A stretch of DNA of 64,000 bases from Paracidovorax konjaci (GTDB taxonomy: Bacteria > Pseudomonadota > Gammaproteobacteria > Burkholderiales > Burkholderiaceae_C), in contig NZ_FOMQ01000013.1 of NCBI RefSeq assembly GCF_900112675.1, positions 1 through 64,000 of the forward strand, in the 5' to 3' direction. The translations under genes were made by a program, and so were the position numbers. Shown piece by piece: positions 7,152 through 41,286 of the stretch. The notes beneath the pieces are model-generated. The model saw nothing but the letters and a program-made list of their open reading frames with translations, was not told the origin of the DNA and ran no database searches. The number at the start of each line of letters is the position of its first letter. The stretch's first letter is position 1.

Positions 7152-8573
7152 TCAGCCCTTGAGCGTCTGTTCCAGCACGTGCAGCTGCTGGTTCAGTTCG
7201 GTGAGCTGCTGGCGCTCGCCGGCGATCTTGCGCACCGCGTGCAGCACCGTCGTGTGGTCGCGTCCGCCGAAGAGCTCGCCGATCTCGGGCAGGCTCTTCT
7301 GCGTGAGTTCCTTGGCCAGGTACATGGCGATCTGGCGGGGCCGCGCGATCGAGGCCGGGCGCTTCTTGCTGTACATGTCGGCCACCTTGATCTTGTAGTA
7401 GTCGGCCACGGTCTTCTGGATGTTTTCCACACTGATCTGCCGGTTCTGGATCGACAGCAGGTCGCGCAGCGCCTCGCGCGCGAGCTGGATGGAGACTTCC
7501 TTCTGGTTGAAGCGCGAATAGGCCAGGATCTTGCGCAGCGCACCTTCGAGTTCGCGCACGTTGGAGCGCACGTTCTTGGCGACGAAGAACGCCACTTCCT
7601 CGGGCATCTCGGCGCTCTCGGCGCGGGCCTTGTTGATCAGGATCGCCACGCGCATCTCCAGCTCGGGCGGCTCGATGGTCACCGTGAGGCCCGAATCGAA
7701 GCGCGACACCAGCCGCTCGTGGATGTTCGCGAGGCCCTTCGGATAGGTGTCCGACGTCATCACGATGTGGCTCTTCTTGGCGAGCAGCGCCTCGAAGGCA
7801 TTGAAGAATTCTTCCTGGGTGCGGTCCTTGTTGGCGAAGAACTGCACATCGTCGATCAGCAGCAGATCGAGCGAATGGTAGTGGGCCTTGAATTCATCGA
7901 AAGTGCGGCGCTGGTAGGCCTTAACCACATCCGAGACGAACTGCTCGGCATGGATGTAGAGAACTTTCGCGTCGGGCTTGTCCTGCAGCAGCCGGTTGCC
8001 CACGGCATGCACCAGGTGGGTCTTGCCCAGGCCCACGCCGCCGTAGATGAAGAGCGGGTTGTACAGGTGGCCCGGCGAGCCGGCGACGTGCATGGCGGCC
8101 GAGCGCGCCATGCGGTTGGCCGTGCCTTCCACGAGGGTCTCGAACGTGAGCGCGGGATTGAGGCGCGAACGGAACGGCACCGCCGCGGGCTCTTCCGGAG
8201 CGGTGCCGCCGGACGAGGGTTCCGCAGCCATCGCCGTCTGTTGGCTGACGGGCCGAACCACCGTACGGGTAACGCTTTCCCGCTGAGCGAGCGCTAACTC
8301 CAGGGTCACGGGCTGGCCGTAGAGGCCTTCCAGCAGGGCCGTGATGCGGCCGGAGTACTGGGAGCGGATCCAGTCGAGCTTGAAGCGGTTGGCCACCAGC
8401 AGGGTGACCTTGGAGAAGTCGGGGGCGACCTGGGCGGCGAGGGGCTTGATCCAGGTGTTGAACTGCTGTTCGGGCAGGTCCTGCGCGAGCTGTTCCACGC
8501 AGGCTTGCCACAGCCCTTGGCCGGGATCGGCGCCGGCATCGAGGTCGGGGCTGTGGGAGGGTTCCTCGGTCAT
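7152..8573 (-). CDS. dnaA: Chromosomal replication initiator DnaA
   Basis: 473 residues. Domain I (about 1-90) starts with [21 protein letters not shown]. Domain II is a low-complexity linker. The AAA+ core has Walker A GGVGLGKT (178-185), Walker [11 protein letters not shown] and sensor regions. The C-terminal DNA-binding domain carries the DnaA-box recognition signature [11 protein letters not shown]. It starts next to the probable origin and is read away from rpmH, which is the common proteobacterial arrangement. Confidence 0.98.
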
Positions 8574-34169: not shown

Positions 34170-35432
34170 TCAGCGCGCGGCGGGCTCGCCCGGCGCCTTC
34201 AGCCGGCCTTCGGTCCGGTTGCGGCCGCCTTCCTTGGCGGCGTAGAGCGCCTGGTCGGCGCGCTCCAGGGTGTCTTCGATCTTCTCGCCGGGAATGTGCA
34301 GCGTGAAGCCGATGGAGACGGTGACGCGCAGCGGCGCCGGTGGGGCCGCGGAGGAGGCGTTGCGCGGGGCGTCCGGTGCCTGCGCCGCGACCTGCAGCCG
34401 CGCCACCGCCTCGCGCAGGCGCTCCAGCAGCGCGCGCGCCGCCTCGGGCGGGGTGTTGCAGAGCATCAGCACGAACTCTTCGCCGCCCCAGCGCGAGAGC
34501 ACGTCGGCCTCGCGCACGCACTGGCGGGCGGCCTGGGCGAAGGCGCGCAGCACGCGGTCGCCGGCCGCATGGCCGTGGGTGTCGTTGACGGCCTTGAAGT
34601 GGTCCAGGTCCAGCAGGGCGATCGTGAGCTGGTGGCCCGAGCGCGCCACCCGCCGCTGCTCCAGCCGCATCAGCTCCAGCATGTGCCGCCGGTTGAGCAG
34701 GCCCGTCAGCTCGTCGTGCGTGGCCAGTTCGCGGATGTGGTCCAGTGCGCGCGCCAGCTCGTGCTTCTGCCGCCGCAGCAGCTCGCGCGTGGCCTGCAGC
34801 CGCGTGGTGAGGAAGGTGCTGCCCAGCAGCACCACCGCGGTCATGATCCCGTAGGCGGCCGAGAGCGCGGGCGAATGGCCGGGCTCCCCGCGCAGCTCCA
34901 CCGCCATGATGGCGATGCCGAAAGCGGCCAGGGCGTAGAGCATCACGCCGAGCATCTGCCGCGTGGACAGCCCGAACATGCCGAACATCAGGATCACCGC
35001 CAGGATCGGCAGCGCGATGCCGCGTGCCTGCCCGCCGATCGAGTACGCCACCGCGTTGCAGGCGATGGCATAGACGATCTGCGCCAGCGTGAGGGAAGGG
35101 TCGGCCCAGCGCTGCGACACGCCGCTGCGGATGAGCCCGTACACCAGCAACAGGCCGCCGGCCGACATCACGGTCCAGATCCGCACGGGACCCGCCGCGG
35201 CCAGCCCCGCCGCGACCGCGATGTGCATCGCGGCCATGCAGCAGGCCATCAGCAGTGCCGCCAGGCCGGCCATGGACAGGCGCGTGCGCTGGCGCCGGTC
35301 GGTCGTGAGGATGGCGTCGAGCAGGCGCGATCCAGCGGTCTTGCCGCCGGGTTTCGCGGACCGTCCTCGTGGCGGGGACGCTGGCGGCAATGGCACCGTG
35401 GGTACTCCTTCGGGGCGCGGGGGCGCCGCCAC
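34170..35432 (-). CDS. Membrane-bound diguanylate cyclase (GGDEF)
   Basis: 420 residues. After a basic N-terminal stretch, about six membrane helices (residues 50-210; GLAALLMACCMAAMHIAVAA and others) lead by a short coiled segment (LQATRELLRRQKHELARALD) to the GGDEF domain. That domain has DELTGLLNRRHM, LLDLDHFKAVNDTHGHAAGD and the intact SRWGGEEFVLML. A Pro/Ala-rich insertion interrupts the C-terminal part. It is the second GGDEF gene in 5 kb, with no EAL or HD-GYP gene nearby. Confidence 0.92.
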   Translation of the reverse strand: MAAPPRPEGVPTVPLPPASPPRGRSAKPGGKTAGSRLLDAILTTDRRQRTRLSMAGLAALLMACCMAAMHIAVAAGLAAAGPVRIWTVMSAGGLLLVYGLIRSGVSQRWADPSLTLAQIVYAIACNAVAYSIGGQARGIALPILAVILMFGMFGLSTRQMLGVMLYALAAFGIAIMAVELRGEPGHSPALSAAYGIMTAVVLLGSTFLTTRLQATRELLRRQKHELARALDHIRELATHDELTGLLNRRHMLELMRLEQRRVARSGHQLTIALLDLDHFKAVNDTHGHAAGDRVLRAFAQAARQCVREADVLSRWGGEEFVLMLCNTPPEAARALLERLREAVARLQVAAQAPDAPRNASSAAPPAPLRVTVSIGFTLHIPGEKIEDTLERADQALYAAKEGGRNRTEGRLKAPGEPAAR

Positions 35433-35517
35433 GGTTTTACTCCAGGCTCCCGCGTGGGGACACTGGCCGGACTGCGCCCGAGGCTGGGAAAAACCCTAGG
35501 GCCGCAGGAGCGCGCCG

Positions 35518-38352
35518 CTACCCCTCCATCGGCGCCAGTTGCGGCACGCCGCGCCGCTTGGCCACGGCGATGGGCGGCGCCCAGCGCGAGCCCTGGGGTT
35601 TCTTGCTGGTCACGAGGGTGATCTCGGCTGGCTCGAACACCTCCAGGTTGTGGGTGATGGGCGTGGTCAGCACGTACTGCGCCTGGGTGGAGCGCAGGAA
35701 GTGCCCCACGAGCTGGATGTTGCGCACGTCCAGGTGGGCGAAGGGCTCGTCGATGAAGACGAAGCCGCCCGAGCCGCTTTCCTCGTCCTTGAGCAGGCCC
35801 ACGAGCAGGATCAGCGACTTGATGACCTGCTGGCCGCCCGAGGCCTCGCCGTCGTTCATGCCGATGCTGCCCTTGCCGTCGAAGGCGAAGTGCACCTTGA
35901 GGCCGGCCTGCGCGAGCACGGTGTCGTCGTTCTCCAGGAGCGGCAGGTCGGCCGCGACCTCGACGCCCGCGAGCGCGCCCAGCTCCTGGATGTTCTTGCG
36001 GTAGCGGCGCACGGTGCTGCGCAGCACCTCGATGTAGCTCTCGCGCGCGTTGTGCACGGCCGTGCCGGCCTGGGCATTCTTGACCTGGTGGTCCGAGAGG
36101 CTCAGGGCCTGCTCGCGCACGGTGGCCTCCATGCGGCGGAAGCGCTCTTCCACGGTGGCGTCCTGCTCCCAGGTGCCCTGGTCGAGCTCCTGCTCCACGG
36201 CCTGCAGGCGCAGCTTGGCCTGGGTGTCGTTGACGTAGTCGTCCTCCAGCGCGCGCAGCGCGGCCGCGGCCGTCCAGCGGGCGGGGAACTGCCGGCGCCG
36301 GGCCTGGCTGCGGCGCGCGGCCTCGAGGTGGCCGCGGCGGCGGGCCGTCCATTCCTGCGCGGCGCGGTCGGTGTCGCCGCGCGCGCGCTTGAGCTGCTGC
36401 TCCAGGCGCTGGTGCTCGTCGGTGAAGGCGCGGTGGCGGTCGTGGGCGCGCGTGGCCTCGGTGTCCAGGCGCTGCCAGCGCTGCGCGGCCGCGATGCGCG
36501 CCTGCCTGCCCGCCGGCAGTTCCTCGCGGGCCTGGGCGAACTCGTCGCTGCGGCGCGCGAGTTCTTCCGAGGCGCTGTGGCCTTCGAGCGCGCGGCGCGT
36601 GTCGGTGACCTGGCGCTTCAGGGCCATCAGCCGGTCGAGCACGGGCGCGAGCTGCGCGTCGATCTGCGCCAGATCGCGCTCGGCGGCGTTGCGGCGCGCA
36701 TGCACGGCCGCGGCGCCGAACTGGTGGTCGCGCGGTTCCACCCACATCGAGCGGGCGCCGCGTCCGTCGTGCATGTAGGCCTGCGGCGTGATCCAGGTGC
36801 CGCCCACGCGCTTGCCCTCGCGCGGATCGGCCACGCAGCGCAGTTGCTGGAGCTGCTGCACCAGCCAGCGCGGCACCGGCGCGGTGAAGCGCACGTGGGC
36901 CAGCAGCGTGCCGGGTTCGCCGCGCAGCGGCTTTTCGCCGGGGCCGACGAGGTAGTGGCGGTAGCGCTCGCGCTCGCCGATGTCGTAGGCCTCGGCGAGG
37001 TCGCTGTCCTTGTCGAGCAGCACCACCCAGCGGTGCCCGCGCAGCACGCCTTCGATGGCCGCGCGCCAGGTTTCGTCGGCCACCTCGACCACTTCGGCCA
37101 CGAACTGGTGGCCGATGCCCTGGGCCACGAGGCGCTTGCGGAACTGCAGCACCTCGGGCGGCAGCGGCGGCAGCGGCTGGCCTTCGAGCGCCTTGAGCGA
37201 TTCCTGCGCGATGCGGCGGCGCTGCTGCAGCGCCGAGCGCTCGTCCTGCGCCTCGGATTCCTGCGCCTGCAGCTGGCGCAGGTGCGCCTGCAGTTCGTCG
37301 GCGTTGCTGCCCTTGTCCACCAGCGCGAGCAGTTCGGCCTCGCGCTTGGCCAGCTGCTCCAGCGGGGCTTCGTGGCGCGTGGCGCCGTCGAGCGCGGTGC
37401 GTGCCTCGTCGCGCTCGGCGCGCAGGCGTTCGGCGTCGGACTGCGCGAGCGTGCTCTCCTGCAGCAGCGTGAGCAGGCGCTTGTTCTGCGCGGCCTGCTC
37501 GGCCAGGGCCGTGCGGTGCTGGGTCTTCTGGCGGCGCAGTTCGCGCGCCTGCTTCACGAGCCCTTCGCGCTCGCCGTGCCAGGCCAGCACCGGCAGCACC
37601 TCGGTGGCGAGGCGCTCGCGCTCGGAGAGCTTGAGCTGCCACGTCTTGTAGCTCGCCACGCGGTTCTGCAGTTCGGAGAGCTGGGTGCGGCTGTGGTCGA
37701 GTTCGCGCTCGGCCTGCACCATCTCGCGCGCGAGCTGATGCTGGTGCTCGCGCGCCTGGTCGTAGGCGTCGAGCACCTGCTGGTCGCCGAACACGTCGAA
37801 CACCAGGCGCAGGAGTTCGCGCGGGCTGAATTCGCAGAGCCGGTCGGTCTGGCCCTGTTCCAGCGAGAGCACGCGCGCGATGGCGGCCGAGAGCCCGGCT
37901 GCGCCGAGCACGCGGCTCCAGGCCTCGACGCCCATGAAACCGAGGTCCTTCTCGGGCGTGTCGCGCAGCTGCTCGATGGAGACGTCGCCGTCCAGCAGGC
38001 AGTAGCGGCGCTGCCAGTCGCCGCCGTTCTTGTCGATGCGGCAGGCGAGGGTCACCTGGTCGGAGTAGAGCAGCCGGCGCGCGAACGGGCGGCTGGAGGT
38101 CTGGCGGCCCTGCGGGCGGTTGTCCACCACGGCGCGCAGCCAGGCGGTCTGCGCGCCCGCATGGCGGGCGTAGGTGCGGTAGTCGCGCGGGGCCGAGCAG
38201 CGCAGGCCCAGCAGCGTGCGCATGGCGTCCAGCAGCGTGGTCTTGCCCGAGCCGTTGGGGCCGGCGATGGTGATGATGGACGCGTCCAGCGGCAGCGCGA
38301 CGCGCTGGCAGTAGTCCCAGTGGACGAGTTCGAGGGTTTGCAGATGGAACAT
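35518..38352 (-). CDS. mksB: MksB-like SMC ATPase (MukB-related condensin)
   Basis: 944 residues. The N-terminal head has Walker A AGPNGSGKTTLLDAM (residues 30-44). Long charged coiled-coil arms follow (about 230-420 and 560-800), with a hinge-like segment between them. The C-terminal head carries the ABC signature ASGGQQVIKSLILL and Walker B FVFIDEPFAHLD. The short arms and the three-gene context fit MksB rather than Smc (about 1,170) or MukB (about 1,490). It starts four bases after the MksE stop. The complex is expected to extrude DNA loops for chromosome organisation. Confidence 0.82.
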   Translation of the reverse strand: MFHLQTLELVHWDYCQRVALPLDASIITIAGPNGSGKTTLLDAMRTLLGLRCSAPRDYRTYARHAGAQTAWLRAVVDNRPQGRQTSSRPFARRLLYSDQVTLACRIDKNGGDWQRRYCLLDGDVSIEQLRDTPEKDLGFMGVEAWSRVLGAAGLSAAIARVLSLEQGQTDRLCEFSPRELLRLVFDVFGDQQVLDAYDQAREHQHQLAREMVQAERELDHSRTQLSELQNRVASYKTWQLKLSERERLATEVLPVLAWHGEREGLVKQARELRRQKTQHRTALAEQAAQNKRLLTLLQESTLAQSDAERLRAERDEARTALDGATRHEAPLEQLAKREAELLALVDKGSNADELQAHLRQLQAQESEAQDERSALQQRRRIAQESLKALEGQPLPPLPPEVLQFRKRLVAQGIGHQFVAEVVEVADETWRAAIEGVLRGHRWVVLLDKDSDLAEAYDIGERERYRHYLVGPGEKPLRGEPGTLLAHVRFTAPVPRWLVQQLQQLRCVADPREGKRVGGTWITPQAYMHDGRGARSMWVEPRDHQFGAAAVHARRNAAERDLAQIDAQLAPVLDRLMALKRQVTDTRRALEGHSASEELARRSDEFAQAREELPAGRQARIAAAQRWQRLDTEATRAHDRHRAFTDEHQRLEQQLKRARGDTDRAAQEWTARRRGHLEAARRSQARRRQFPARWTAAAALRALEDDYVNDTQAKLRLQAVEQELDQGTWEQDATVEERFRRMEATVREQALSLSDHQVKNAQAGTAVHNARESYIEVLRSTVRRYRKNIQELGALAGVEVAADLPLLENDDTVLAQAGLKVHFAFDGKGSIGMNDGEASGGQQVIKSLILLVGLLKDEESGSGGFVFIDEPFAHLDVRNIQLVGHFLRSTQAQYVLTTPITHNLEVFEPAEITLVTSKKPQGSRWAPPIAVAKRRGVPQLAPMEG

Positions 38353-38355
38353 GGG

Positions 38356-39045
38356 TCAGGCGGGCTCGGACTCGGGGGAGGGCGGCGGGGGCGCTGCGGC
38401 GTCCGCGGCCGGTGCGGCGGCGCGCTCGCGCGCGAGCACGTCGGCCAGCGCGCCGTCGAGGATGCGCGGGGCCAGCACGTCGTAGTCGAGCAGCACATCG
38501 AGCAGCGGGCCCTCGGCGATCTCGTCCTGCCGGCGCACGATGAAGCCGTGGCGCTCCAGCAGCTTGAGGTTGGCATCCAGCCGCAGCTTCTTGCCGAGCT
38601 GGTTGCCGTAGTCCTCCAACAAAGTCTTGTACGACAGCACGGGGCTGGCGAGCCGCGCGGAGGGCAGCGGCTTGGCGCCGGGGAAGAAGTCGTTCTGGCC
38701 GTCGCCCTCGGCCTCGGTGCGGCTCGTCTGGCGCTCGCGCTTGGGCAAAACGATGAGCGCCCACAGCACCACCAGCAGGGCCTGCGCGTCGCGCGGCAGG
38801 TCGAGGTTGTTGTTGGCGTTGAGCGCGCCTTCGCCCATCACGGCGTTCTGCGCGGGCGGCAGCAGGGCCACGCTCACGTGGTCCGCATAGATGCTGTCCA
38901 CGAAGCGCAGGCCGGCCTGCGCGAGGCGCTGCTCGACCTGGGCGAACAGTTCGGCATCGACCAGCGCGCGCTTGACGCGCGGGTGGCTGCGCGGCAGCCA
39001 GCGGCGCGTGAGGAGTTCTGCGATCAGCAGGGCGGCGTCGTCCAT
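38356..39045 (-). CDS. mksE: MksE-like KITE subunit of the SMC complex
   Basis: 229 residues, not strongly conserved in sequence, identified mainly by context. It starts MDDAALLIAELLTRRWLPRS. The two winged-helix-like halves expected for KITE proteins are plausible: LLVVLWALIVLP early, and KTLLEDYGNQLGKKLRLDAN with LKLLERHGFIVRR later. A Pro/Ala-rich tail ends it. It lies between the kleisin and SMC genes in the usual Mks order, with almost no gap to mksB. Confidence 0.72.
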   Translation of the reverse strand: MDDAALLIAELLTRRWLPRSHPRVKRALVDAELFAQVEQRLAQAGLRFVDSIYADHVSVALLPPAQNAVMGEGALNANNNLDLPRDAQALLVVLWALIVLPKRERQTSRTEAEGDGQNDFFPGAKPLPSARLASPVLSYKTLLEDYGNQLGKKLRLDANLKLLERHGFIVRRQDEIAEGPLLDVLLDYDVLAPRILDGALADVLARERAAAPAADAAAPPPPSPESEPA

Positions 39046-39121
39046 GGGCAGCGGTCCATCCGGGAAAAGAAACGGGAAGAAAGAAAAGGCACGGAAAGCA
39101 GGGCAGCGGCGGCGGGCGGGT

Positions 39122-40567
39122 TCAAGGGGCGGGCTCGGCTGGCGCGTGCGCTGGCGCCGGAGCGTCCGCGGGCCAGTCGGCCGGCACCACGTGCCCGCAG
39201 CTCATGAGTTCCACCTGCGCATGGTCCAGCGCCTGCGTGGCCGCCTCCCACTGCACGCGCCACGGCTGCCGCGCGAGCGCGCCCGTGGCGCCCGGCAGCA
39301 CGCCGGCCTGCGGGTCGCCGAGCAGCGGCAAGAGCTGGGCCTTGTAGGCCACCTGGGCATAGCGCGCGGACGCCGGCACGGCGCCCAGCAGCGCCTCGGC
39401 CACGTCGCGCGGAGCGGCCTGGCCGCCCTGCGCCCAGGCGGACAGCAGATCGGCCAGATCGCCCAGCTCGCGGGGCAGGGCCACGGCGGAGAGCGTGCCC
39501 ACGGGCGCTTCCTGCGCGCCGGGCAGGTCCTCGGCGGGCCCCTGCGTGGGGCGGTCGCGCTCGAACTCGGCCTCGGTCACGTCCAGCAGTTCGTGCGGCG
39601 CGAGCGCGCACATCCCCACGGGCATGGCGATCGCGCCCTCCGCCAGTGCGCCGGGCTGGCGCAGCGTCTGCAGCCAGCGCTTCACGTCGGTGCTGGTGAT
39701 GCCGGTGGTGCCGAGCGTCACGCGCTGGCGGTCCACCTGCTGCAGCGCGCGGTTGAACTGGCTCGCCATGGCGAGCAGGCGCGACTGGGCCTGGCCCAGG
39801 GCGCGTGCCGCGCGCTCCATGGCGATGTGGCCGTGCGCGTGGCCGATGATGGCCGTGATGGCATCCGAGGCGCGGTCGATGAGCTGCGCCGCGCGGTCGT
39901 AGCGCTGGCGCGCCGCGCGCAGCCGGAATTCGGAGCCGCTCGCGATGGCATCGGCGAATTCGCCGTGCAGCCGCGTGAGCTGCGCCTGCAGCATCTGCAA
40001 TTGGCCGGGATCGAGCGCGCCCAGCTGGTTGGCGCCCACCACCTGCCCGAGCAGCGCGGCCAGCTCGCCGCCTTCGGTGTCCTGCACGGCCGCATCGCTG
40101 TTGGCCAGCGGCGCGAGCAGCCCGGCCACGCGCTGCGCGAGCGGCGGCAGTGCATAGGCGCGCAGGCTGTCGTCCCAGACCAGCAGGCCCACGTCGCGGA
40201 AGCGCTTGAGCACCGTGTCCAGCGCCTCGGGGCGCAGCGCGTGGAACAGCTCGTCGATGCGCTCGCGCGAGAGCTGCGCCTCGCCCTGGCGCGCGAGCTG
40301 CAGGAACGCCCAGAGGCGCAGCTGCACGAGCGCCGCCGGGCCGTGGAAGAGCCCGCTCAGCGCCTGCGACAGTTCCTGCTCGCGCGCAATGCGCCAGAGC
40401 AGCGGATCGTCGGTGGCGGCATCCGTGTCGCGGAAGAAGTCGAACAGCGCGCCGGCCGATTCGCCCAGGCCCCCGGCCGCGGCCAGGTCGGCATCGGGCG
40501 CGTCGCTCCAGGGGGTGTCGGTGCCGGCCGTCGAGGGCCGGGCGAAGGTGTCGGGGGGCGCCGTCAT
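39122..40567 (-). CDS. mksF: MksF-like kleisin subunit of the SMC complex
   Basis: 481 residues from an ATG that overlaps the rsmE stop as ATGA. The N-terminal region (about 40-140) looks like a winged helix (QLRLWAFLQLARQGEAQLSR, RRFRDVGLLVWDD-like). A helical middle holds heptad-like segments (LQMLQAQLTRLHGEFADAIA), and a C-terminal domain follows. This layout and length match MksF/MukF-type kleisins that bridge the SMC heads. Assignment depends on the neighbouring SMC gene. Confidence 0.72.
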   Translation of the reverse strand: MTAPPDTFARPSTAGTDTPWSDAPDADLAAAGGLGESAGALFDFFRDTDAATDDPLLWRIAREQELSQALSGLFHGPAALVQLRLWAFLQLARQGEAQLSRERIDELFHALRPEALDTVLKRFRDVGLLVWDDSLRAYALPPLAQRVAGLLAPLANSDAAVQDTEGGELAALLGQVVGANQLGALDPGQLQMLQAQLTRLHGEFADAIASGSEFRLRAARQRYDRAAQLIDRASDAITAIIGHAHGHIAMERAARALGQAQSRLLAMASQFNRALQQVDRQRVTLGTTGITSTDVKRWLQTLRQPGALAEGAIAMPVGMCALAPHELLDVTEAEFERDRPTQGPAEDLPGAQEAPVGTLSAVALPRELGDLADLLSAWAQGGQAAPRDVAEALLGAVPASARYAQVAYKAQLLPLLGDPQAGVLPGATGALARQPWRVQWEAATQALDHAQVELMSCGHVVPADWPADAPAPAHAPAEPAP

Positions 40568-41286
40568 CCGCAGGCCAGCAGCGAGAGCGCCGCCACGGAG
40601 GCCGTCTCGGCGCGCAGCACGCGCGCCCCCAGGCTGGCGGGCAGGAAGCCCTGCGCCAGCGCCAGGTCCTCCTCGTGCGGGGCCAGGCCGCCCTCGGGGC
40701 CATGCAGCACCTGCACGGCCGGCGAGGCACCGGCGGCATCCAGCAGGGGCCGGCTGCCGTCCCGCAGCGACAGCACGAGCCGCGTGGCGCCGGGCGCAGG
40801 GCCCAGGCGCAGCCAGTCGGCGAGGGCGATGGGCGCGCCCACCGGCGGCACGCGGTTGCGCCCGCATTGCTCGCAGGCGGCCGCGGCGATGGCCTGCCAG
40901 TGGGCCTGGCGCTTCGCGGCCCGCTCGCCCGCGAGCTTGAGCACGCTGCGCGCCGCCGCCACGGGCTGGATGCCCGCCACGCCGAGTTCGGTGGCTTTTT
41001 CGACCAGCCAGTCCATGCGCTCGTTGGCCGGCATGCCCACGACGAGGTGCACGGCGCGGGGCGCTTCGCGCTCCACGGGGTCGTGCGCGCCCACCTCCAC
41101 GTCCACGTCCGAGCGGCCCATGCGCGCCACGGTGGCCGCATATTCGCCGCCGCGCCCGTCGAACAGCGTGATCGCATCGCCGGGCTGCAGGCGCAGCACC
41201 TGCACGTGGCGGGCGGCAGCGGGCGGCAGGGCCAGCGCGGCCCCGCTGGCGAGCGGCTCGGGGCAGTGGAATCGGGGAATGTTCAC
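40564..41286 (-). CDS. rsmE: 16S rRNA (uracil-1498-N3)-methyltransferase RsmE
   Basis: 240 residues, a SPOUT-fold enzyme. It begins MNIPRFHCPEPL with LPPAAARHVQVLRLQPGDAI, the PUA-like N-terminal part. The knotted SAM site shows VHLVVGMPANERMDWLVEKA, ELGVAGIQPV and VLHGPEGGLAPHEEDLA. It normally stands alone or with glutathione synthase genes; here its stop codon overlaps the kleisin start, suggesting one operon with the SMC genes. Confidence 0.95.
   Translation of the reverse strand: MNIPRFHCPEPLASGAALALPPAAARHVQVLRLQPGDAITLFDGRGGEYAATVARMGRSDVDVEVGAHDPVEREAPRAVHLVVGMPANERMDWLVEKATELGVAGIQPVAAARSVLKLAGERAAKRQAHWQAIAAAACEQCGRNRVPPVGAPIALADWLRLGPAPGATRLVLSLRDGSRPLLDAAGASPAVQVLHGPEGGLAPHEEDLALAQGFLPASLGARVLRAETASVAALSLLACG

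What the first reader, a model, noticed from the sequence alone, without database searches (positions are those of the whole stretch)
35518..41286. Mks-type SMC operon (MksF-MksE-MksB) fused to rsmE translation, without the nuclease subunit
Kleisin, KITE and a short-armed SMC ATPase follow rsmE with an ATGA overlap. The order fits MksFEB. No JetD/MksG-like nuclease gene follows (a GGDEF gene does), so it is likely a chromosome-organising condensin rather than a Wadjet plasmid-defence set. It lies about 30 kb from the origin.
Basis: partly seen in the sequence, partly recalled or inferred. Interest (0 to 1): 0.65.

Follow-up and report, generated by a model that had tools for sequence, protein, structure and literature searches.

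The report
SMC motor that lost its nuclease
The three genes encode a DNA-looping machine of the kind that some bacteria use to destroy plasmids, but here the DNA-cutting gene has dropped out while sister species still carry it in the same place, so it looks like a defence machine turned to another, probably chromosome-related, use.

Summary
Kleisin, KITE and SMC genes are there as described, behind rsmE with an ATGA overlap, 27-33 kb from dnaA. They are not P. aeruginosa-type MksFEB: by profile comparison the SMC is nearest to JetC (Wadjet), then canonical Smc, then MksB. The KITE model's best solved folds are KITE-sized chains of JetABC; the kleisin's, weakly, MukF/JetA-like ones. PADLOC JetA/JetB and Pfam MksE models miss both. 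No JetD is found in the window or its whole genome. Yet relatives carry a JetD-type TOPRIM gene directly behind this SMC: 17 of 68 genomes with the SMC (16 unbroken, 1 broken), 5 of 16 in the genus; 0 of 12 without it. The window's SMC stop is followed by the sequence that follows jetD in sister species. jetD state changes at least 12 times on an SMC tree, 10 forced by starred branches; jetABC stays under purifying selection without it (dN/dS 0.045-0.18). Best reading: a divergent JetABCD-type system stripped of its nuclease here and kept as a nuclease-free loop extruder, probably for chromosome organisation (inferred).

The parts
40564..41286 (-). rsmE, 16S rRNA U1498 methyltransferase; gene at the insertion site, overlapping the kleisin gene
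   Evidence: NCBIfam equivalog 1.6e-95; ATGA overlap; directly upstream of and, by extrapolated starts, overlapping the kleisin gene in the window and in 14 of 14 same-genus stretches
39122..40567 (-). JetA/MksF-like kleisin, 481 aa
   Evidence: No NCBIfam or PADLOC family and only weak unrelated Pfam hits. Model pLDDT 73.5; the five best Foldseek rows are chains of MukBEF/MukEF (4) and JetABCD (1) structures, 315-466 residues, best E 3.6e-3, i.e. weak (that these chains are the kleisins is inferred from their length). Conserved next to KITE and SMC
38356..39045 (-). JetB/MksE-like KITE (two winged-helix-like halves), 229 aa
   Evidence: Model pLDDT 71; the only three Foldseek PDB matches under 1e-3 are 176-195-residue chains of JetABC structures (8as8_C 4.9e-6; JetB inferred from length); VIA-align Z 9.5 to 8as8_C at rmsd 14.9 over 151; weak DUF4194 in 4 of 27 homologues, best 0.0019
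35518..38352 (-). JetC-like short-armed SMC ATPase, 944 aa, heads about aa 1-205 and 775-944, Smc/JetC-type hinge about aa 406-526
   Evidence: SMC_N 2.6e-14; PADLOC JetC1 5.4e-32; hinge stretch alone: 13 of 13 PADLOC matches are JetC1; SMC_hinge in 14 of 20 homologous hinges, the window's own only at E 0.079; hhalign JetC > Smc > MksB > RecN
35433..35517 (-). 85-bp junction between the SMC stop and the GGDEF gene, the place where jetD stands in sister species
   Evidence: From 15 bp behind the SMC stop into the GGDEF gene it matches G015 (72.7% over 132 bp, E 2.5e-11), G012 and G011 from about 20 bp behind the jetD stop on; gap 85 bp here against 1287-1584 bp in the 5 jetD+ same-genus genomes
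34170..35432 (-). GGDEF protein next to the set; neighbour, not part of the complex
   Evidence: GGDEF 1.4e-43; next to rsmE in G001, where kleisin, KITE and SMC have no match

Best explanation
The set encodes a diverged JetABC-type SMC complex (kleisin, KITE, short SMC) of a Burkholderiales-centred branch of the Wadjet/Mks superfamily. The full version is a JetABCD-like four-gene operon whose last gene is a JetD-type TOPRIM nuclease. In the window's lineage jetD was lost from between the SMC gene and the GGDEF gene, and jetABC was kept. Mechanism (inferred from family knowledge): ATP-driven engagement of the SMC heads, bridged by the kleisin and KITE dimer, extrudes DNA loops; in jetD+ relatives a fully extruded small circle would be cut by JetD; without JetD the motor still loads and extrudes but cannot cut, and most likely works on the chromosome beside Smc-ScpAB, as MksBEF does in P. 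aeruginosa. Shown here: gene anatomy, JetC affinity, presence of jetD in relatives, its absence here, the junction, purifying selection without it. Inferred: loop extrusion, the direction (loss) for most lineages, and the chromosomal role.
For: JetC affinity; the JetC comparison set is JetC1 by PADLOC in 8 of 8. KITE fold. jetD in 17 of 68 genomes with this SMC and in 0 of 12 without it; each hit lies next to the SMC except the second piece of G894's gene, on another contig (positions). JetD identity: PADLOC JetD1 in 14 of 14 (13 distinct), best 3.9e-16; DUF2399 in 3 of 14; invariant ENR.SFE and CDPDPAG. SMC and JetD distances agree over 13 taxa (Mantel r 0.91, 0 of 500 shuffles). Junction. 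At least 12 changes of jetD state over 80 SMCs, 10 forced by starred branches; 5 in the genus and near kin, 4 forced. Broken jetD pieces in G026. dN/dS of the three genes in four jetD-less pairs 0.045-0.180; 11 of these 12 values are below that of rsmE in the same pair (0.141-0.235), the exception being KITE in G016-G003. Of 64 named loci L050-L113, 60 lack jetD behind the SMC and 4 cannot be read. Precedent: P. [quoted passage not shown]).
Against: No wet-lab data. Kleisin identification rests on order and a weak fold match. KITE and kleisin profiles do not align significantly with canonical JetB/MksE or JetA/MksF, though canonical MksF against JetA does not either. JetC is not first in every test: with heads taken alone the PADLOC model mad3 scores above JetC (9.6e-11 against 5.3e-8; 2.2e-7 against 7e-7), the best solved-structure rows are cohesin Smc3/Rad50-like chains, and with five JetC sequences the C head scores below Smc. 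Parsimony counts cannot tell gain from loss; a remnant was found in one lineage only (G026). The set is patchy: 46 of 300 Burkholderiales genomes, absent from G001 of the same genus, odd for a chromosome organiser and more usual for defence. Window-G010 dN/dS of the SMC (0.097) is twice that of the jetD+ pair G008-G015 (0.048), though rsmE rises alike (0.141 against 0.078).
Confidence: 0.55

Rival explanations
1. Still defence without its own nuclease: JetABC entraps or fully extrudes small circular DNA and thereby silences or destabilises it, or hands it to an unrelated host nuclease.
For: The set is patchy and cassette-like, absent from the rsmE-GGDEF interval in G001; the SMC is nearest to JetC, a defence family; kept under selection without jetD.
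Against: Among the neighbour clusters shared by several of 41 loci (the 25 largest printed) I recognised no other nuclease, by eye and without a family search of all of them; recurrent neighbours look like housekeeping genes (rsmE; obgE-, rplU- and ispB-like by eye, rlmL by Pfam for one).
Confidence: 0.22
2. Gain direction: the branch was first a chromosome-type SMC complex and jetD was added several times, or moves in and out by recombination between strains.
For: Counts of changes do not give direction; large jetD-less groups such as the loci L050-L113, mostly Oxalobacteraceae.
Against: jetD sits in one place and orientation in distant lineages inside and outside the order (G425, G814, G815, G860, G840), its distances follow the SMC's (r 0.91), it overlaps or abuts the SMC stop, and G026 holds broken pieces.
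Confidence: 0.13
3. A disarmed leftover: the window's jetABC is a non-functional remnant of a recent jetD loss and will decay.
For: Loss looks young in some lineages (G013 and G009 group with jetD+ genomes).
Against: All three frames are intact; dN/dS 0.085, 0.045 and 0.097 between the window and G010, jetD-less sisters, below rsmE at 0.141; whole jetD-less groups keep the three genes.
Confidence: 0.1

Closest known systems
Wadjet type I, JetABCD (also MksBEFG, EptABCD)
   Same: Gene order kleisin-KITE-SMC-(TOPRIM nuclease in relatives); SMC profile closest to JetC; KITE fold like KITE-sized JetABC chains; the relatives' fourth gene is JetD1 by PADLOC
   Different: No jetD found in the window or its genome; kleisin and KITE match no PADLOC JetA/JetB model, here or in the four jetD+ relatives tested; SMC 944 aa against 1107-1180 aa in the eight JetC sequences compared
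   Same: Kleisin, KITE and SMC; SMC of similar size (917-943 aa in the five stand-ins)
   Different: The MksB profile is more distant from this SMC than JetC and Smc are, with no hinge match; MksE PF21980 does not detect the KITE nor anything in the own genome
Smc-ScpAB
   Same: Smc-type hinge recognisable (SMC_hinge in 14 of 20; 4rsj at 2e-4)
   Different: The canonical smc and scpA are separate loci in the same genome
MukBEF
   Same: Kleisin model's best Foldseek rows are MukBEF/MukEF chains
   Different: MukB N-terminal model only E 0.017, below cut-off

Membership tests
Wadjet type I (JetABCD) | JetC-type SMC ATPase | tested here: met
   hhalign to eight JetC (all JetC1 by PADLOC) ranks first in full length, N head, hinge and C head; with five JetC the C head falls behind Smc. 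Hinge stretch hits JetC1 models only; heads alone score higher to mad3
Wadjet type I (JetABCD) | JetB-type KITE | tested here: inconclusive
   Fold: the three PDB rows under 1e-3 are KITE-sized JetABC chains. Sequence: no PADLOC model, hhalign to JetB co-linear but E 0.036
Wadjet type I (JetABCD) | JetA-type kleisin | tested here: inconclusive
   Fold rows of MukBEF/MukEF and JetABCD chains at E 3.6e-3 to 3.7e-2; no sequence match
Wadjet type I (JetABCD) | JetD TOPRIM nuclease in the operon | tested here: not met
   Not found in window or genome; met in 16 of 68 genomes with this SMC plus 1 broken. The window's set is therefore filed as JetABC-type, Wadjet-derived, not as a Wadjet system
Wadjet type I (JetABCD) | Restriction of small circular plasmids | not testable with these tools
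   Needs transformation and plasmid stability assays
MksBEF (P. aeruginosa type) | MksE (PF21980) KITE | tested here: not met
   No match in the window protein or in its 26 homologues; none in the own genome
MksBEF (P. aeruginosa type) | SMC closest to MksB | tested here: not met
MksBEF (P. aeruginosa type) | No nuclease subunit; coexists with Smc-ScpAB | tested here: met
   (scpB not looked for)
MksBEF (P. aeruginosa type) | Role in chromosome organisation and segregation | not testable with these tools
   Needs Hi-C and segregation assays
RecN / SbcC / RecF | SMC-like ATPase closer to RecN, SbcC or RecF than to kleisin-bearing SMCs | tested here: not met
   RecN last (one sequence); NCBIfam sbcc 0.015 and recf 9.9e-11, both far below cut-off; kleisin and KITE partners present

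The most novel reading that the evidence does not exclude
A JetABCD branch of Burkholderiales, missed by the JetA, JetB and MksE models used here, in which the nuclease is an optional module: the JetABC motor is the conserved core and jetD has been dropped many times, so that anti-plasmid defence and a nuclease-free chromosomal (or silencing) role interchange between sister species at one fixed locus. This would show the proposed Wadjet-to-MksBEF transition caught repeatedly and recently.
Probability: 0.4. Interest if true: 0.82.

Novelty: new variant of a known kind. Interest (0 to 1): 0.68.

Why it matters
A review proposes that MksBEF arose from Wadjet by losing JetD (PMC10586767). Here jetD+ and jetD-less versions stand at one locus in sister species of one genus, with a readable junction and with the remaining motor under purifying selection. 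That makes the question 'what does a Wadjet motor do without its nuclease?' directly testable with natural, closely matched pairs. The kleisin and KITE are also missed by the PADLOC JetA/JetB and Pfam MksE models, so tools that demand all four Wadjet genes may overlook the branch.

Tried and rejected
Plain MksFEB label: rejected because MksB and MksE fit worse than JetC or not at all. A first comparison with 3 MksB sequences was repeated with 5, which raised MksB (full length E 3.8e-14) without changing the order. Single-sequence segment searches were ambiguous: the C head hit Smc better than JetC, the N head both alike, and the hinge hits lay mostly in coiled coil. The full-length NCBIfam SMC_prok_B hit (4e-22) and PADLOC JetC hit (5e-32) lie largely in coiled coil, so heads and hinge were tested apart; there mad3, Smc3 and Rad50-like rows also came up (see evidence against).

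A first conclusion 'no nuclease' (JetD_C in the own genome) was overturned for the family by the neighbour clusters. Kleisin and KITE profiles found no solved structure by sequence; the JetD profile found three unrelated weak rows. VIA rows for the kleisin are mostly MarR-like winged helices and long helices: not used. Weak Pfam hits of the kleisins (Peptidase_M48 0.0096) and PADLOC JukB for two kleisins (7.7e-5 and 0.0023) were judged chance or shared winged helix. Extra gene between kleisin and KITE in three loci: no Pfam family, not pursued.

Literature: the listed rows (20 of 30 listed; 5 of 1,070 listed; 12 of 783 listed) show no title on this set; 'rsmE'+'SMC'+'kleisin' gives 0 papers. 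Petrushenko 2011 (PMC3179180) and PMC4119464 are not held, so I cannot say whether that survey listed these proteins. Wadjet is reported in Ralstonia solanacearum (PMC7251935, passages); whether it is this branch was not tested. Papers seen: PMC10586767 passages and section 7; PMC10123090, PMC10512200, PMC12153180, PMC7251935, PMC12287153 passages only; the rest as search listings.

Rows dropped: A1 used 26 of 35 dereplicated KITEs, A2 all 21 kleisins, A3 19 of 22 SMCs, each plus the window. Of 11 large SMCs beside PF21980 genes, 8 made the JetC set; L138 and L146 were left out and L135 was moved to MksB. Tree: 137 SMCs reduced to 80 by a similarity filter, 5 of unknown jetD state not counted; quick method, with warnings that long branches meet. 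One search took the 68 genomes with this SMC known by then (G052's 36% piece left out) and 12 chosen ones without. Neighbours were compared in 41 chosen loci. dN/dS: 9 chosen pairs of 15 genomes, Nei-Gojobori.
Full report
Observation. The operon is as described. On the minus strand rsmE (40564-41286) overlaps by ATGA a 481-aa kleisin-like gene (39122-40567), followed by a 229-aa KITE-like gene (38356-39045) and a 944-aa SMC (35518-38352), then a GGDEF gene. dnaA is at about 7152-8573, so the set is about 27-33 kb from the origin. In four same-genus genomes the SMC lies about 30-36 kb from the end of a chromosome-sized contig (G007, G008, G013, G016), which fits conserved origin proximity if those records start at dnaA (assumed). 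The own genome has a canonical smc and scpA; scpB was not looked for.

Conservation (own genome counted each time). The SMC is found in 25 of 60 near relatives (E <= 1e-3; one of them, G052, is only a 36% piece at E 3e-4), in 46 of 300 Burkholderiales genomes and 26 of 134 genera, in 6 of 398 of the phylum and in 2 of 369 of the class; in these samples only G425 and G688 lie outside the order. In the genome collection 218 stretches encode relatives, of which the best 80 were kept. Of 164 fetched loci 153 hold kleisin, KITE and SMC; of 41 chosen loci 40 have them in this order on one strand, the other being cut by its contig end.

What the subunits are. The libraries recognise only the SMC. Profile comparison ranks JetC first, Smc second, P. 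aeruginosa-type MksB third and RecN last (full length E 5.7e-26, 4.1e-20, 3.8e-14, 7e-4; N head 2.8e-13, 1.2e-9, 2.2e-7, 9e-5; hinge 4.8e-7, 7.9e-7, 0.0074, 0.6; C head 2.1e-6, 6.6e-6, 0.0058, 0.038; sets of 8, 20, 5 and 1 sequences). All 8 JetC sequences are JetC1 by PADLOC. The hinge and C-head leads of JetC over Smc are small, and with five JetC sequences the C head falls behind Smc (1.5e-5). The hinge stretch alone matches 13 PADLOC models, all JetC1, but each head alone scores best to mad3, another defence ATPase, with JetC1 next. Against solved structures the whole profile hits JetC first (8.3e-9), the N head a cohesin Smc chain (4.5e-6, JetC 2.7e-5) and the C head a Rad50-like and Smc3 chains (about 1e-4, no JetC row; Rad50 recalled for 5da9). 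SMC_hinge is seen in 14 of 20 homologues, weakly in the window (0.079). The KITE model (pLDDT 71) has three PDB matches under 1e-3, KITE-sized chains of JetABC. The kleisin model (pLDDT 73.5) has none under 1e-3, but its five best rows of 350,542 chains are from MukBEF/MukEF (4) and JetABCD (1), of kleisin size. By sequence neither KITE nor kleisin aligns significantly with canonical JetB/MksE or JetA/MksF; canonical MksF against JetA fails too. So an SMC of JetC affinity is well supported, the KITE good, the kleisin probable.

The missing nuclease. JetD_C has no match in the genome. However, in 7 of 41 loci a gene of about 400 aa follows the SMC directly. Its profile found it also in same-genus loci. 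PADLOC calls it JetD1 in 14 of 14 (13 distinct; best 3.9e-16), Pfam DUF2399 in 3 of 14; ENR.SFE and CDPDPAG are invariant, as expected of a TOPRIM nuclease (meaning recalled). Over whole genomes it occurs in 17 of 68 genomes with this SMC and 0 of 12 without. Each hit is next to the SMC (positions), except the second piece of G894's gene, which runs over a contig end; G026's is broken into three pieces; the stop that flags for G008 lies just before the ATG. In the window's genus it is in 5 of 16; named records with it are P. anthurii, P. oryzae ATCC 19882 and P. cattleyae.

Loss at the window. In jetD+ same-genus genomes 1287-1584 bp separate the SMC stop from the GGDEF gene; in the window 85 bp. 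From 15 bp behind the SMC stop into the GGDEF gene the window matches, at 73%, what lies from about 20 bp behind the jetD stop in G015, G012 and G011. So the gene is missing, to within some 20 bp, from stop to stop. G010 and G002 show the same junction homology; other jetD-less genomes have other sequence there, an acetyltransferase-like frame in G003 and G016 and a repeat-rich one in G013 (judged by eye). In G001 kleisin, KITE and SMC have no match and rsmE and GGDEF are neighbours.

History. On a tree of 80 SMCs jetD state (broken counted as present) changes at least 12 times; starred branches force 10 (quick tree with long-branch warnings). On a better supported DNA tree of the genus and near kin it changes 5 times, 4 forced (broken counted as absent). 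SMC and JetD distances agree over 13 taxa (Mantel r 0.91, 0 of 500 shuffles). With one fixed position in distant lineages and broken pieces in G026 I read most changes as losses; the counts alone cannot show direction.

Selection. Between the window and G010, jetD-less sisters, dN/dS is 0.085 (kleisin), 0.045 (KITE) and 0.097 (SMC), against 0.141 for rsmE and 0.253 for GGDEF; three other jetD-less pairs give 0.052-0.180 for the three genes, in 8 of 9 values below rsmE (exception: KITE 0.180 against 0.141 in G016-G003); three jetD+ pairs give 0.041-0.175. jetABC is thus kept without jetD. In the named loci L050-L113 none of the 60 that could be read has jetD behind the SMC.

Mechanism. From the families (loop extrusion by JetABC, cutting of fully extruded small circles by JetD: PMC10586767 and PMC12287153, passages) the jetD+ version should be an anti-plasmid system. 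Without JetD the motor would extrude but not cut. The nearest precedent is P. [quoted passage not shown] I therefore commit to a nuclease-free loop extruder with a chromosomal role at 0.55; steps beyond anatomy, history and selection are inference. Housekeeping-like surroundings (rsmE here; an Obg-like gene in 13 of 41 loci, named by eye) fit; the patchy presence of the whole cassette speaks against and leaves room for nuclease-free defence.

Verdict on the finding. Observation confirmed; interpretation partly supported. The label should be JetABC-type, Wadjet-derived, jetD lost; not MksFEB proper, and not a member of Wadjet as it stands because the nuclease test is not met.

Noticed in passing
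L220:7263-7943, L224:6884-7537, L228:6606-7271: An extra gene of about 220 aa (M(G/S)LLD(E/D)LKQQA near its start) between kleisin and KITE in three loci; no Pfam match. A possible additional subunit.
   Followed up: partly
L231 (G994), SMC from oriented position 7830: The SMC matches only to residue 880 and runs on in a 2572-aa open frame; fusion or frame slip not resolved.
   Followed up: no
L280 (G013), L275 (G016), L276 (G003), directly behind the SMC: Other sequence stands in jetD's place: a frame with long dipeptide-like repeats in G013, an acetyltransferase-like frame (by eye) in G016 and G003.
   Followed up: partly
NZ_LR594663.1 179627-182217 and NZ_LR594690.1 515007-544562: Two Variovorax plasmids carry half-length matches to this SMC and JetD-like matches; perhaps broken or interrupted copies of the four-gene set on large plasmids.
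   Followed up: no
L041 and L044: Two loci have the SMC (L044 also jetD) but no kleisin or KITE frame found in the 3.2-6 kb upstream.
   Followed up: no
L150-L152, L213, L214, L220-L222, L225, L227-L229, L231: In 13 of 41 loci the set stands near an Obg-like GTPase gene, with rplU- and ispB-like genes in some (names by eye); none of the 13 has jetD behind the SMC.
   Followed up: partly
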